From positions 1-64,000 of the forward strand of contig NZ_PITQ01000011.1 in assembly GCF_002834385.1 (NCBI RefSeq): DNA of 64,000 bases, in the 5' to 3' direction. The DNA comes from Rahnella sp. AA (lineage in GTDB: Bacteria > Pseudomonadota > Gammaproteobacteria > Enterobacterales > Enterobacteriaceae). Shown here piece by piece: positions 55,716 to 60,662 of this stretch. Positions within the stretch are counted from its first letter, which is position 1; each line of letters begins with the position of its first letter. The position numbers and the translations under genes are program-made. Below the pieces are notes generated by a model. It was given only the letters and a program-made list of their open reading frames with translations. It ran no database searches and had not been told where the DNA came from.

Positions 55716-57041
55716 GTGAAGGAACGTAGTACAGAACTGGTTCAGGGATTTCGCCACACAGTTCCCTATATTAATGCGCACCGTGGCAAAACGTTCGTGG
55801 TCATGCTCGGTGGGGAAGCCATAGAACATGAGAATTTTAGCAATATCGTCAATGATATCGGGCTGTTACACAGTTTAGGCATCCGTCTGGTGGTGGTGTA
55901 TGGCGCACGCCCGCAGATTGATGAGAACCTTTCTGAGCACAATTATGAGCCGATTTATCACAAAAATATCCGTGTGACAGATGCCAGAGCCCTTGAGCTG
56001 GTGAAGCAGGCCGCAGGCTTGTTGCAGCTGGATATCACCGCGCGACTTTCCATGAGCCTGAATAATACGCCACTGCAGGGCGCACATATCAATGTAGTCA
56101 GCGGGAATTTTATCATTGCTCAGCCGCTGGGCGTCGATGATGGCATTGATTACTGCCACAGTGGCCGTATCCGCCGTATCGATGAAGAAGCGATTCACCG
56201 CCAGCTCGACAGCAATGCGATTGTGCTGCTTGGCCCGGTAGCAGTTTCCGTCACCGGGGAAAGCTTCAATCTGACATCAGAAGAAGTTGCGACACAGCTG
56301 GCTATAAAACTGAAAGCCGAGAAAATGATTGGTTTCTGCTCTTCGCAGGGCGTCATCAACGATGAAGGGAATATTATCTCCGAGTTATTCCCAAACGAAG
56401 CCCAGGAACGTATCGACCTGATGGAATCGAGCGGAGACTATCTTTCCGGTACTGTACGGTTCCTGCGTGGCGCGGTGAAAGCCTGTCGCAGCGGCGTACG
56501 TCGCAGTCACCTGATCAGTTATCAGGAAGATGGCGCGCTGGTTCAGGAACTGTTCTCACGTGACGGTATTGGTACGCAAATCGTCATGGAAAGCGCTGAG
56601 CAGGTTCGCCGCGCCACCATCAACGATATCGGCGGTATTCTCGAGCTGATCCGTCCGCTGGAACAACAGGGCATTCTGGTTCGCCGCTCCCGCGAACAGT
56701 TGGAAATGGAAATCGACAAATTCACCATTATCGAACGCGATAATCTGACCATTGCCTGTGCCGCACTTTATCCGTTCCACGATGAAGGGATTGGCGAAAT
56801 GGCGTGCGTGGCGGTTCATCCTGATTATCGCAGCTCTTCACGCGGCGAAATGTTGCTACAACGCGTCGCCAGTCAGGCCAAACAGATGGGCCTGAACCGG
56901 TTATTTGTGCTGACGACACGCAGCATCCACTGGTTCCAGGAGCGTGGTTTTAAACCAGCGGAAGTCGACGTCCTGCCGATTCAGAAACAGGAAATGTACA
57001 ACTATCAGCGCCGGTCTAAGATCCTGATTTCAGATCTCTGA
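55716..57041 (+). CDS. argA: N-acetylglutamate synthase
   Basis: First step of arginine synthesis, acetylating glutamate; inhibited by arginine. The 441-residue protein has an N-terminal amino-acid-kinase fold ([17 protein letters not shown] region, about 21-37) and a C-terminal GNAT acetyltransferase domain ([17 protein letters not shown]). Starts with GTG behind CGAGG; E. coli also starts this gene with GTG. It has two residues fewer than E. coli. It is followed at once by a bidirectional terminator and ptrA rather than by recD. Confidence 0.96.
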
Positions 57042-57068
57042 AAATCAGAACCCGTTATTCCGAACATC

Positions 57069-57095
57069 AAAAAGGACGCTTTCGCGTCCTTTTGC
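57069..57095. terminator. Bidirectional terminator between argA and ptrA
   Basis: Stem AAAAGGACGC-like AAAGGACGC / GCGTCCTTT with a TTTC loop, T-run on the plus strand and A-run before it. It ends both argA and the convergent ptrA. In E. coli recD and recB occupy this place. Confidence 0.88.
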
Positions 57096-57114
57096 TTTTA
57101 CTAAAACCTGATAT

Positions 57115-60006
57115 CTATTTACTGGTTTGCGATTTCAGAGCTTGCTGCAGGGTCGAGGTATCCGGCCAGGTTTTAAAACCTTCCGGCGCAGCATACTGAG
57201 GCGTTTTACTGTCGTTGCCAGAAACCTGTGACAGCATCGCCAGACCATCTTGCACAATCACAGCCTGATGGAAATAATCGGCCAACTGAGTCTGCGTCAA
57301 CTCGGCAATCACGCGGATCACATTTGCCCGGGTATCAAACTGAGCATTTCCGCGACTGAAATCATTCCCCAGACGATCGGCTTCCTCATCCAGAGTCTGC
57401 GGACGTTGCTGCATCTCATTCACTAATCCCTGCTTATATTGCAGGAATTCAGTATCTTTCATCTCACGCAAACGCTTTTCAGCCTGCGGGTAAAATGCCA
57501 GATAACGCTGATAGAGATAGTCAGGCTGTTTACTGTTACTTTGCAGCAGGAACCCGATCCCCCACTGCTTCCCTACCGGGATCGGGAAAGCAAATACTGC
57601 ATATCCCAGCTGCTCCTGAGTACGTAACTGACTGTAGAACCACGGTTGAATAATTTGCCCCAGCAGAGCGCTGTAACCCATACTTTGTACTTCATCGTAA
57701 CCAGCCGGCACATACACGGCTGCCAGTGCGGAATCAGAACTGGTTCCTATCCTCTGGATATTAGCCTTTACTGGTTGCGTCACCTGAGCATACTCACCAC
57801 GCCACCACTGAGTACCGTGCAAGCCAAGTTTGTTCATAATCTGCTGCGACATGGCCTTAACTTGATCACCCGTCATGTTCCCGACGACCATCACTTCAAC
57901 AGCAGCATGGTGAACCAATTGTTCGCGGTAAGCGTTTACGTCATCCAGCGTAATTGCAGAAACTAACTTTTCGCGTTCGCTACGCTCGGTGTAAGGCACT
58001 CGGGACAATAACTGAACCGGCTGCAACGCCAGTTCAAAGGCCTTGCCTTTATCAGCGGAAGATAAACGTTCCAGATACCAGGATTTTGCCTGATCCAGCT
58101 GTTCCTGCGTCGGCTTAAAGTTCGGATAGTTATCCACTAATGCCGCCAGCAAATCAGGCAGACATTCAGTAAAGCCGGTGGCGGTAAATTGCAGACCATT
58201 ATCCGGAGATGTCCCGAACGTGATACCGCCTATGGACGCCTGATAGCTCAGTTGATCAAACGCGACGCCAGTCAGGTAATCCGTCAGGCCGTACAGCACC
58301 TGATTTTTGGCCGAACTGAGTGCCTCTTCATTACGGAATGACACCGTGACATTGGCTTTCGGCTCATCGGCAAAGTACCGGCTGGGCATGTAGAAAACAC
58401 GCAGCCCTTTATCTTCCACCAGCAATTCTGGTTTGGTCGCCGTAGAGTCTTTTGTCACCAGCGCCAGAGAATCGGGAATATACGGGTTCAGCGCTGGCAG
58501 CGACAACGTAATGCCCTGCGCCAGCGTTTTCCATTGTTCAAAAGTTTGCGGCGGCACTTTATCAACTTCGTAAGGCGCGTCCATAAAGTAAGCTATTTTG
58601 TTGTGAGGCTCATTCGGGCTGATGATCCAGAACCTCGCATTTTGCGGCGTCATTTCATCCAGACGCGATGCGATAGCCTTGGGATCATACTGATCGGTCA
58701 GATAGGGTGAATCGAGCACATGTTCAACAGGAACACGCAGCATGGTATCCACCAGCCATTCCACATAATCCATATCGCGGGTTAACGCCGGATACCGAAA
58801 ATCGAGCGCCATAACGTGAGCGATTTCGTCGAAATAAGATTTCTGAATTCCCTGCGTCCGCATCTCGTTGAGATAACTGAAAATAGCGGCAATCACCGTA
58901 TCGCGCTGAGCAAGACCTTTATCCGTCAGGGAAACAGAGATATTAAATACCCCCATATTCCGGTTAACCATCGGGTCCGCACCAGCGCTAATACCATCTG
59001 CGTAACCTTGCTTCTGCAACCAGTCTGACAGCGTATTCGGGCTGCGGTTGCCAATCAGATAGCTGATATAGGTATCTGTTTTACTGCGAAAATCTGCACT
59101 GTTGTTGTCGATGGCAAATTCAACACGTAATTCTTTGCGAGGCTGTGCAGGAACAAAGTGGATGAATTCACCTTTTTGCTCTGCCGTCACCGTCGGCACG
59201 GTAATCGGCGGTACAACGGCATGATGGTTGGCTATCTTTCCAAAGGTATTGGCGGCCAAATCAGCCAACTCCGGCAACGGTTTATTGCTGTAAATCACCC
59301 CCACCAGCAGATTGGCCGAGTAATAGCGGTGATAGAACGCGGTGAGCTGATCGTGAAGTTTGCTGCCTGGTTTATCTTTTAACGTATCCAGATTGCCGCC
59401 GGAATAACGAGCCGCCGGGTGCTCAGGGTTTAACGTTTCAGCCCGAACCTGCGCCATGCGCATACCATCACGCGAACGTGCCATCGTCAGTTCGGCATTC
59501 ACCGCATTACGCTCACGATCGCCGTTAGCCGGATCCAGCAATGGCTCTCCAATAGCGTCCGAAAGACGATCTACCGCTTCAGGCAGGGCATCATTTTCAA
59601 CTTCCAGATAAAAGGCCGTGCGGTAAGACGCAGTGCTACCGTTATGGCTGCCGCCGTGTTTTTTGAGGAATTCAGAAAGGCTTTCAGGCTGAGGATACTT
59701 TTTAGATCCCATCAGAAGCATGTGTTCTGTGTAATGGGCAAGGCCAAGCTGGGAATCAGGATCTTCCAGCGAACCGACGGGAATCGCCAGCGCAGCAAGT
59801 GATTTGGGAGCCTGAGGGTCTGACACCAGCAATACCGTCATATCATTATCAAGTTTGATAGCCTGATACAGGCGGGGGTCGTTCTGACTTTTATTGATAG
59901 CTTGTGCATAAGGCTGCCATCCGGCTGCACTTGAAACAACAGGGGCCCAAAAGGTCAATAACAACAGTAACCCTGAAATTCGGGTAACCTGCTTCAACAT
60001 TGCCAC
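57115..60006 (-). CDS. ptrA: Protease III (pitrilysin)
   Basis: Periplasmic zinc metalloprotease of the M16A family that degrades short peptides. The 963-residue precursor (962 in E. coli) has a Sec signal (hydrophobic 12-27, cut near SSA) and the inverted zinc motif H91-Y-T-E94-H95; the more distal glutamate lies about 75 residues later. An in-frame ATG two codons in is an alternative start. In E. coli ptrA lies between recC and recB and overlaps recB; here neither is present. Confidence 0.96.
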   Translation of the reverse strand: MAMLKQVTRISGLLLLLTFWAPVVSSAAGWQPYAQAINKSQNDPRLYQAIKLDNDMTVLLVSDPQAPKSLAALAIPVGSLEDPDSQLGLAHYTEHMLLMGSKKYPQPESLSEFLKKHGGSHNGSTASYRTAFYLEVENDALPEAVDRLSDAIGEPLLDPANGDRERNAVNAELTMARSRDGMRMAQVRAETLNPEHPAARYSGGNLDTLKDKPGSKLHDQLTAFYHRYYSANLLVGVIYSNKPLPELADLAANTFGKIANHHAVVPPITVPTVTAEQKGEFIHFVPAQPRKELRVEFAIDNNSADFRSKTDTYISYLIGNRSPNTLSDWLQKQGYADGISAGADPMVNRNMGVFNISVSLTDKGLAQRDTVIAAIFSYLNEMRTQGIQKSYFDEIAHVMALDFRYPALTRDMDYVEWLVDTMLRVPVEHVLDSPYLTDQYDPKAIASRLDEMTPQNARFWIISPNEPHNKIAYFMDAPYEVDKVPPQTFEQWKTLAQGITLSLPALNPYIPDSLALVTKDSTATKPELLVEDKGLRVFYMPSRYFADEPKANVTVSFRNEEALSSAKNQVLYGLTDYLTGVAFDQLSYQASIGGITFGTSPDNGLQFTATGFTECLPDLLAALVDNYPNFKPTQEQLDQAKSWYLERLSSADKGKAFELALQPVQLLSRVPYTERSEREKLVSAITLDDVNAYREQLVHHAAVEVMVVGNMTGDQVKAMSQQIMNKLGLHGTQWWRGEYAQVTQPVKANIQRIGTSSDSALAAVYVPAGYDEVQSMGYSALLGQIIQPWFYSQLRTQEQLGYAVFAFPIPVGKQWGIGFLLQSNSKQPDYLYQRYLAFYPQAEKRLREMKDTEFLQYKQGLVNEMQQRPQTLDEEADRLGNDFSRGNAQFDTRANVIRVIAELTQTQLADYFHQAVIVQDGLAMLSQVSGNDSKTPQYAAPEGFKTWPDTSTLQQALKSQTSK

Positions 60007-60236
60007 TCTCCCTCAATCGAGTAAATATGCCCTGGGGCACTAAAAATAAACAGTTCCACAACTGAACGATCTCAACCTGCTGTTTTCCGCTATCAGGTCT
60101 ATTCAGACCGCGCAGATGCAGGATAGTTGTGAAAAAAATCGAACCGGGATAGGCAGTCAGGAGCTCCGTCACATTTTGTACCCGAACCGGAAGTTCCCTG
60201 CAGGGGAAAATCACCCCGCTAAACCACTCTAAGCTG
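60007..60236. other. Spacer between ptrA and ppdC where recC is expected
   Basis: This 230-bp stretch separates the ppdC stop from the ptrA start. None of its frames looks like any part of RecC that I know. It holds a 10-bp palindrome CCCTGCAGGG (near 60196-60205) and presumably the ptrA promoter. I see no degraded gene, terminal repeat or mobile-element trace. Confidence 0.6.
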
Positions 60237-60662
60237 TTAGCCCGTCATTGCAAGCCGCTTGACGGTATTTTTGCTTCTCATTGAGAAGTCCCCTTCCCTT
60301 TTGTAAAGGTTCGGCTGGCACATCAGGCGCTGTAATACAGCCTGATATTTTGTCGGCGTTTGGATTGCAACACGGACCAACTCACAGGATTTTTCCGCTG
60401 AAATGCCAGATAATTGATATTCCCAACCTTTAGCTAAGGAGCCAGTACCATGACCTGTCACAGAATAGGCTTCTAACTGAGCATGGGCACCTGACCAGGC
60501 CTGCTGAACCTGCCACTGACGCATAAAACTATATGTCAGGGACTGATAATAATTAAGTAGTCCTAAAATGGAGACTGACAGCAATAACATCGCAATCAGG
60601 GCTTCAGGCAAGCTAAAACCCTGCGGTGCTGAGTTGATCTCATCCATTACAAACCAGCTCAT
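60237..60662 (-). CDS. ppdC: Prepilin-type N-terminal cleavage/methylation domain protein PpdC
   Basis: Minor-pilin-like inner-membrane protein. The type III signal is QG-FSLPEALIAM, with glutamate at +5 and a hydrophobic stretch to about residue 35. With 141 residues it is longer than E. coli PpdC (about 107), mostly in the C-terminal part, which has two cysteines. The start overlaps the ygdB stop by 23 bp; a second ATG at 60647 would overlap by 8 bp. Last of a four-gene set expected to act together in pilus or pseudopilus assembly. Confidence 0.82.
   Translation of the reverse strand: MSWFVMDEINSAPQGFSLPEALIAMLLLSVSILGLLNYYQSLTYSFMRQWQVQQAWSGAHAQLEAYSVTGHGTGSLAKGWEYQLSGISAEKSCELVRVAIQTPTKYQAVLQRLMCQPNLYKREGDFSMRSKNTVKRLAMTG

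What the first reader, a model, noticed from the sequence alone, without database searches (positions are those of the whole stretch)
57042..60236. recB, recC and recD are missing from their conserved locus while ptrA between them is kept
In E. coli and, to my knowledge, Yersinia-type relatives the order is argA - recD - recB - ptrA - recC - ppdC - ygdB - ppdB - ppdA - thyA - lgt. Here every flanking gene is present in the same order and orientation, yet argA is followed after 73 bp by ptrA, and ptrA is preceded by only 230 bp before ppdC. About 9 kb of sequence on both sides of ptrA is absent. Removal on both sides of one gene, with no remnant, points to selective loss or replacement of the RecBCD enzyme rather than one random deletion. 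If no RecBCD or AddAB is encoded elsewhere, this would be a free-living enterobacterium with another double-strand-break resection route. Loss or relocation is inference.
Basis: partly seen in the sequence, partly recalled or inferred. Interest (0 to 1): 0.75.

Follow-up and report, generated by a model that had tools for sequence, protein, structure and literature searches.

The report
Foreign RecBCD replaced native in Rahnella
These soil and plant bacteria have not lost the enzyme that repairs broken DNA: they appear to have swapped it for a distant version from other bacteria, placed elsewhere on the chromosome, and then lost their own copy cleanly from both sides of the gene it used to surround.

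Summary
In detail: in this Rahnella genome argA, ptrA and ppdC are separated by 73 and 230 bp, without recC, recB or recD. Loss is wrong: an intact recC-recB-recD operon lies on another contig. It is not the native cluster moved. Its proteins are 37-46% identical to Ewingella's, while PtrA and ArgA are 80% and 95%. They miss NCBI's enterobacterial RecB/C/D models, which Ewingella passes. Trees place them among RecBCDs of other proteobacteria and reject vertical descent, and recC keeps 58-61% GC beside 50-53% GC ptrA. All 14 Rahnella genomes searched carry this type and no second RecC match. One genome of a non-sister genus carries the closest relative and the same emptied locus. Best reading: an acquired RecBCD displaced the native one, whose genes were then deleted on both sides of ptrA. 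RecC residues tied to Chi are mostly kept and E. coli's Chi octamer is about as frequent as in sister genera, so Chi may be unchanged. Donor, timing and driver are unknown.

The parts
55716..57041 (+). argA, left border of the emptied locus
   Evidence: ORF; 95% identical to ArgA of Ewingella
57042..57114 (.). 73-bp gap between the argA and ptrA stops (convergent); recB and recD stand here in canonical relatives
   Evidence: no recB/recD remnant recognised
57115..60006 (-). ptrA (pitrilysin), kept intact, 963 aa
   Evidence: ORF; 59-97% identity to PtrA in the 80 loci; annotated ptrA in E. coli
60007..60236 (.). 230-bp gap between ptrA and ppdC; recC stands here in canonical relatives
   Evidence: only about 20 bp at each edge resemble Ewingella
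60237..60662 (-). ppdC, right border of the emptied locus; ygdB, ppdB, ppdA, thyA and lgt follow (to about 63990). The displacing recC-recB-recD operon lies outside the window at G000:C21:715308-724530 (minus strand; probable recC start)
   Evidence: ORFs; operon, start

Best explanation
The operon settled beside what are now an OYE/rbs gene block and an MFS/LysR pair. Its three genes overlap by ATGA and encode a full RecBCD. Once it supplied double-strand-break resection and RecA loading, the native recC and recB-recD were redundant and were deleted on either side of ptrA. ptrA, argA and ppdC were kept because they have their own functions. A second, non-sister genus (code g97, near Prodigiosinella) carries the closest relative of this operon, and the one genome of it that was checked shows the same emptied locus, so the swap probably happened twice. 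Shown: intact foreign operon, no second RecC match, emptied locus, trees, GC. Inferred: order of events, redundancy as cause, a working enzyme, two separate events.
For: Intact operon with all three curated TIGR models over cut-off. RecC/RecB/RecD identity to Ewingella 37/42/46% against PtrA 80% and ArgA 95%. Enterobacterial NCBIfam models not met by Rahnella (RecC 865 of 1470, RecB 1071 of 1697, RecD 585 of 671 bits) but met by Ewingella for all three and by Prodigiosinella and Rouxiella for RecC, the only subunit tested there. Trees put Rahnella + g97 outside canonical Enterobacterales; AU tests reject Rahnella with canonical for RecC (nominal p 6e-59), RecB (5e-5) and RecD (9e-94). GC of recC 58-61% in 14 Rahnella against 50-53% for their ptrA and 49-52% for type-1 recC of five relatives. 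14 of 14 Rahnella genomes have one RecC match at E 0.001, 88-100% identical to the query. In a family sample 10 of 392 genomes, 2 of 154 genera, pass E 1e-220, which the native type does not reach. G109 of genus g97: one RecC match, argA-ptrA-ppdC with other gap lengths. ATGA overlaps. Catalytic motifs present. Relatives of the operon sit on plasmids of Halomonas and Methylomonas.
Against: Identity between the Rahnella and g97 operons (66-70%) is close to that of native RecBCD between Ewingella or Rouxiella and Prodigiosinella (62-66%), which would also fit one old acquisition with many later losses. No tRNA was found in ten loci around the new sites and no integrase was recognised by eye among the ORFs, so no vehicle is visible. 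No empty insertion site was found in sister genera. The donor is not identified beyond 54-60% identity, and the Paraburkholderia recC matched in two pieces and may be broken. Trees are quick searches with several long branches. In G109 only, not in the other three g97 genomes, were the locus and a native RecC checked. Function is not tested.
Confidence: 0.87

Rival explanations
1. Old coexistence: the common ancestor of several families carried both RecBCD types, and lineages sorted them by differential loss. Rahnella and g97 kept the foreign-type copy, others the native one.
For: Rahnella-g97 identity in RecC/B/D (68/66/70%) is close to the host divergence seen in native RecBCD (62-66%); Rahnella and g97 are sisters in all three trees.
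Against: Needs long retention of two enzymes and many losses: 382 of 392 family genomes have no match at E 1e-220 (the sample includes reduced symbionts, some without any RecC). No genome with both types was noticed, though genomes with several matches were not examined one by one and its list was cut. The operon still has high GC in both lineages, which old residence should have lowered. The flanking genes of Rahnella were not found beside the g97 operon.
Confidence: 0.1
2. Ordinary relocation of the native recBCD cluster to another chromosomal site, with fast evolution afterwards.
For: The cluster is intact and on another contig, with a single RecC match in each Rahnella genome.
Against: Clade tests reject grouping with canonical RecBCD for all three subunits; the genes are 54-60% identical to Paraburkholderia's and 37-46% to Ewingella's; GC is foreign; enterobacterial models fail.
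Confidence: 0.01
3. True loss of RecBCD with another double-strand-break resection route, or an assembly collapse in the window.
For: The locus is empty.
Against: A full RecBCD is encoded. The same emptied locus occurs in 7 named and 13 other-or-same held Rahnella assemblies (some may be the same strains), among them G002 and G011 on contigs over 4.7 Mb.
Confidence: 0.01

Closest known systems
E. coli-type RecBCD at argA-recD-recB-ptrA-recC-ppdC
   Same: Three-subunit helicase-nuclease, same curated families and catalytic motifs; 11 of 12 listed Chi-pocket positions identical to the E. coli locus used
   Different: 37-46% identity to the Ewingella form, uninterrupted recC-recB-recD operon with ATGA overlaps, other locus, high GC, below the enterobacterial PRK cut-offs
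recCBD operons of other proteobacteria (e.g. Paraburkholderia sp. PGU19 plasmid; P. syringae Lz4W RecBCD, PMC5959072)
   Same: recC-recB-recD gene order; Paraburkholderia RecC/B/D 59/54/60% identical (RecC over a 963-aa frame; 54.6% over two pieces by tblastn); asparagine at the position of E. coli RecC T40
   Different: The host is an enterobacterium whose relatives have their own RecBCD. P. syringae uses GCTGGCGC as Chi (PMC5959072, passages seen); no P. syringae sequence was compared here
AddAB/RecBCD replacement among phyla (PMC1193525)
   Same: One end-resection enzyme standing in for another, explained there by horizontal transfer
   Different: Here one RecBCD displaces another RecBCD inside a family. 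That paper reports little horizontal transfer among recombination genes in 117 genomes (passages seen)

Membership tests
RecBCD (exodeoxyribonuclease V) | RecB, RecC and RecD equivalog models over curated cut-off | tested here: met
   TIGR00609 1060 of 696, TIGR01450 1106 of 583, TIGR01447 577 of 310 bits
RecBCD (exodeoxyribonuclease V) | Walker A in RecB and RecD, PD-(D/E)XK nuclease motif in RecB (motifs recalled) | tested here: met
   ASAGTGKT at 25 and DYKSN at 1131 of RecB, GGPGTGKT at 199 of RecD; PF12705
RecBCD (exodeoxyribonuclease V) | ATP-dependent, Chi-regulated helicase-nuclease activity | not testable with these tools
   needs biochemistry or complementation
Enterobacterial (E. 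coli-type) RecBCD | NCBIfam PRK11069, PRK10876 and PRK10875 over cut-off | tested here: not met
   865 of 1470, 1071 of 1697, 585 of 671 bits; the Ewingella control passes all three
Enterobacterial (E. coli-type) RecBCD | Genes interleaved with ptrA between argA and ppdC | tested here: not met
Enterobacterial (E. coli-type) RecBCD | Groups with canonical Enterobacterales in trees | tested here: not met
   AU rejects for RecC, RecB and RecD
Enterobacterial (E. coli-type) RecBCD | RecC residues tied to Chi recognition (list in PMC5959072) | tested here: inconclusive
   11 of 12 listed positions match the E. coli locus used, T40 reads N; Ewingella, Rouxiella and Prodigiosinella read P there, and the paper's D137 reads Q in that E. 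coli locus. By the paper these residues are conserved in P. syringae, whose Chi differs
AddAB / AdnAB | AddA model over cut-off | tested here: not met
   Rahnella RecB scores 165 of 708 and 111 of 861 bits against the two AddA models; AddB and AdnAB were not searched in the genome

The most novel reading that the evidence does not exclude
RecBCD, treated as a fixed housekeeping enzyme, is here an exchangeable module that moves as one operon (relatives sit on plasmids, one mobilisable, one with an integrase nearby). It has displaced the native enzyme independently at least twice in Enterobacterales, perhaps because a divergent RecBCD escapes phage proteins that inhibit the resident one or the defence systems that guard it, with Chi compatibility deciding which donors can succeed.
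Probability: 0.3. Interest if true: 0.82.

Novelty: new variant of a known kind. Interest (0 to 1): 0.6.

Why it matters
RecBCD and Chi are thought to be locked together and RecBCD to be vertically inherited (general knowledge; PMC1193525 reports little transfer of recombination genes). A genus that works with a RecC only 37% identical to its relatives' gives a natural test of how far Chi recognition, RecA loading, phage inhibitors (Gam, gp5.9, Abc2) and RecBCD-guarding defence tolerate an enzyme swap. It also warns that RecB may be unsafe as a housekeeping marker in this family: one paper used it with GyrB, InfB and RecA, if its figure legend is taken as printed (PMC6993521, two passages seen).

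Tried and rejected
Chi statistics. A maximal-order Markov test on five sequence sets gave GCTGGTGG at 0.88-1.17 of expectation: 800 kb of Rahnella G011 1.09, 420 kb of Prodigiosinella 0.90, 380 kb of Ewingella 1.06, pooled Rahnella loci 0.88, and pooled canonical loci 1.17, the last inflated by near-copies. So the test does not resolve Chi in Rahnella or its relatives. Leading-strand bias in G011: 84 of 148 sites (my sum from the table, origin and terminus taken from cumulative GC skew), p 0.12, not significant. In three foreign-type genomes the octamer is 8-10.5 times as frequent as its reversed form, but in a fourth, G895, only 2.1 times. In a 100-kb sample of one of the three, G478, GCTGGTGC is as frequent (39 against 36). 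So there is no proof that the foreign type reads GCTGGTGG.

Remnants of native rec genes in the two gaps: none recognised.

Empty insertion site in sister genera: not found. The flanking GGDEF gene has only 36-38% matches in 2 of 5 relatives. The flanking TIM-barrel gene has a close match (84%) in Rouxiella alone of the five; its rbs cluster is there, but the other flank genes were not found in the 20 kb fetched.

Name of genus g97: not obtained. A PtrA search of plasmid records gave at most 62.4% in the rows listed.

Print searches: Rahnella with RecBCD gave 0 papers. Searches listed 7-15 papers each, of up to 362 found; no listed title or opening of an abstract reports RecBCD displacement in Enterobacterales. 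Beyond listings, only passages of PMC5959072, PMC7644769, PMC1193525, PMC9836394 and PMC6993521 were seen. Subscription papers are mostly not held.
Full report
Observation. The argA-ptrA gap is 73 bp and the ptrA-ppdC gap 230 bp. Neither gap holds a recognisable piece of recC, recB or recD. In Ewingella the same stretch carries recC (3.4 kb) before ptrA and recB-recD (5.4 kb) after it, so about 9 kb is missing, as stated.

Who carries this locus. A search of genome records with the window's PtrA kept the best 80 of 127 loci. The nearest is Rahnella laticis (96%). 7 of 7 Rahnella loci have no rec gene there; 72 others match recC, recB and recD around ptrA; 1 (L060) matches recC and recB and stops at its contig end. 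One of the 72, a Trabulsiella strain, has broken recB and recD. In 14 held Rahnella genomes, 13 show argA-ptrA-ppdC directly; in G010 an IS4-type transposase gene follows ptrA, and argA was not reached. The arrangement is therefore a genus trait, not an assembly fault.

RecBCD is present. The window's genome has one full-length RecB, one RecC and one RecD match, contiguous on contig C21 at 715308-724530. recC-recB and recB-recD overlap by ATGA. Walker A motifs and the RecB nuclease motif are intact. The same RecC is found in 14 of 14 Rahnella genomes, 88-100% identical to the query, as the only RecC match at E 0.001. Of the 14 stretches around the operon, 13 show the MFS gene after recD, the rbs genes before recC, or both; the stretch of G007 ends at recD and has another gene before recC. 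G011 carries the operon on a 4.76-Mb contig, so it is chromosomal there.

It is foreign. RecC, RecB and RecD are 37, 42 and 46% identical to Ewingella's, while PtrA is 80% and ArgA 95%. Against Paraburkholderia sp. PGU19 (a 1.44-Mb plasmid) they are 59, 54 and 60%; its recC matched in two pieces and may be broken. NCBI's enterobacterial models are missed by wide margins for RecB and RecC and by 86 bits for RecD; Ewingella passes all three. Quick maximum-likelihood trees put Rahnella with genes of other proteobacteria, and AU tests reject a clade of Rahnella plus canonical Enterobacterales for RecC, RecB and RecD. Long branches are present, so the exact sister outside the family is unsure. recC has 58-61% GC in the 14 Rahnella genomes, against 50-53% for their ptrA; type-1 recC of five relatives has 49-52%. 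In sampled G011 sequence 3 of 267 three-kilobase windows reach 59% GC, and the operon averages 58.7%.

A second case. In a sample of the GTDB family (149 genomes), 142 had a RecC match; only two Rahnella and G109 (genus code g97) had a full-length match above 50%. In a larger sample 10 of 392 genomes, in 2 of 154 genera, passed E 1e-220, which the native type does not reach: six Rahnella and four g97. G109 has one RecC match, and its argA-ptrA-ppdC locus is also empty, with other gap lengths (by match ends about 150 and 66 bp). PtrA+ArgA place it beside Prodigiosinella, the only Pectobacteriaceae in that tree, which keeps the canonical locus, so it is not sister to Rahnella. Its operon is 66-70% identical to Rahnella's and sits beside an AvrE-family effector gene, a CesT-type chaperone gene and, further on, a pectate-lyase-domain gene. 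The other three g97 genomes were not checked for a native RecC or for the locus.

One event or two. The two operons are each other's closest relatives, at a distance (66-70%) close to that of native RecBCD between Ewingella or Rouxiella and Prodigiosinella (62-66%). One old acquisition with many losses is thus not excluded. Different gap lengths, different flanking genes, high GC in both (g97 recC 62-65%, G109 ptrA 55%) and no match at E 1e-220 in the other 382 of 392 family genomes favour two acquisitions from related donors, or one acquisition and a later transfer. This step is inference.

Vehicles. Relatives of the operon, complete with recC-recB-recD, sit on a 229-kb Halomonas plasmid near an integrase and a toxin-antitoxin-like pair, and on a 278-kb Methylomonas plasmid typed mobilisable. 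This shows that such operons can ride plasmids; it does not show how Rahnella got its own.

Chi. Of the 12 RecC positions listed in PMC5959072 (passages seen), Rahnella matches the E. coli locus used at 11; T40 reads N, as in the 11 other foreign-type RecCs listed, and P in Ewingella, Rouxiella and Prodigiosinella. The paper's D137 reads Q in that E. coli locus. One search counted GCTGGTGG in 22 genomes; ratios to the reversed octamer (mine) are 2.9-3.5 in six Rahnella, 3.0 in Ewingella, 2.3 in Rouxiella, 3.5 in Serratia sp. M24T3, 2.7 in the record named Hafnia psychrotolerans, 3.2 in Prodigiosinella, 3.7 in G109, 3.1-4.7 in four further family genomes, 5.2-5.7 in two Enterobacter, 8.0-10.5 in three foreign-type genomes of other families and 2.1 in a fourth (G895). 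So the octamer has been neither lost nor gained in Rahnella relative to its sisters. The finer tests do not resolve Chi in these genomes. The likeliest view, by inference, is that the incoming enzyme read the same or an overlapping Chi.

Mechanism. RecBCD resects double-strand ends, degrades foreign linear DNA and loads RecA after Chi (established knowledge). A second functional RecBCD makes the first redundant, and mixed subunits might be harmful. Deletions removing recC, and recB with recD, would then be neutral or favoured, while ptrA, argA and ppdC are kept by their own functions. This explains why the gap is two-sided and clean. Phage proteins Gam and gp5.9 bind RecB, Abc2 binds RecC, and a retron is proposed to guard RecBCD (PMC9836394, passages seen). 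A divergent enzyme could escape them; this was not tested.

Verdict. The enzyme family is known; a genus-wide displacement of one RecBCD by a distant one, with a second lineage showing the same scar, was not seen in the listings of the paper searches. PMC1193525 reports little horizontal transfer of recombination genes (passages seen).

Noticed in passing
L171 and L186 (G109), L296 (G1088): In G109 (genus g97) the foreign recCBD operon lies beside an AvrE-family type III effector gene, its CesT-type chaperone gene and, further on, a pectate-lyase-domain gene; in G1088 the fetched flank is collinear into the effector gene at about 90% nucleotide identity.
   Followed up: partly
L145:4443-5765 (Rahnella G010): An IS4-type transposase gene follows ptrA on the argA side in one Rahnella genome.
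   Followed up: yes
L086:12871-17943 (Trabulsiella odontotermitis strain 01): recB and recD are broken in this strain, while strain TbOT1.10 (L087) has nearly full-length matches to both.
   Followed up: partly
L090 (CACSKA010000005.1): A record titled Chryseobacterium sp. 18061 holds an Enterobacterales-type thyA-recC-ptrA-recB-recD-argA locus, so the record may be mislabelled or contaminated.
   Followed up: no
L027 and L023: The record named Hafnia psychrotolerans groups with Ewingella and its kin, and Serratia sp. M24T3 with Rouxiella, on PtrA+ArgA and on RecB/C/D; their names may be wrong.
   Followed up: no
L180 (Halomonas sp. I5-271120 plasmid), L181 (Methylomonas sp. DH-1 plasmid): Complete recC-recB-recD operons on plasmids with toxin-antitoxin-like genes nearby, one with a site-specific integrase gene about 5 kb away, the other with a WYL-domain gene just upstream of recC.
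   Followed up: no
order-level sample, family code f25: Within one family, 11 of 12 listed genomes of genus g173 have the foreign-type RecC (47-54% identity to Rahnella) and one has about 40%; those of genus g182 whose identity is listed have about 40%. RecBCD swaps may be more common in the order.
   Followed up: no
L161:13484-15142, L158:7832-9490: In Rahnella G011 and G007 the gene before recC is a 552-aa ORF that looks like a two-partner secretion transporter (recalled, not searched), instead of the block seen in some other species.
   Followed up: no
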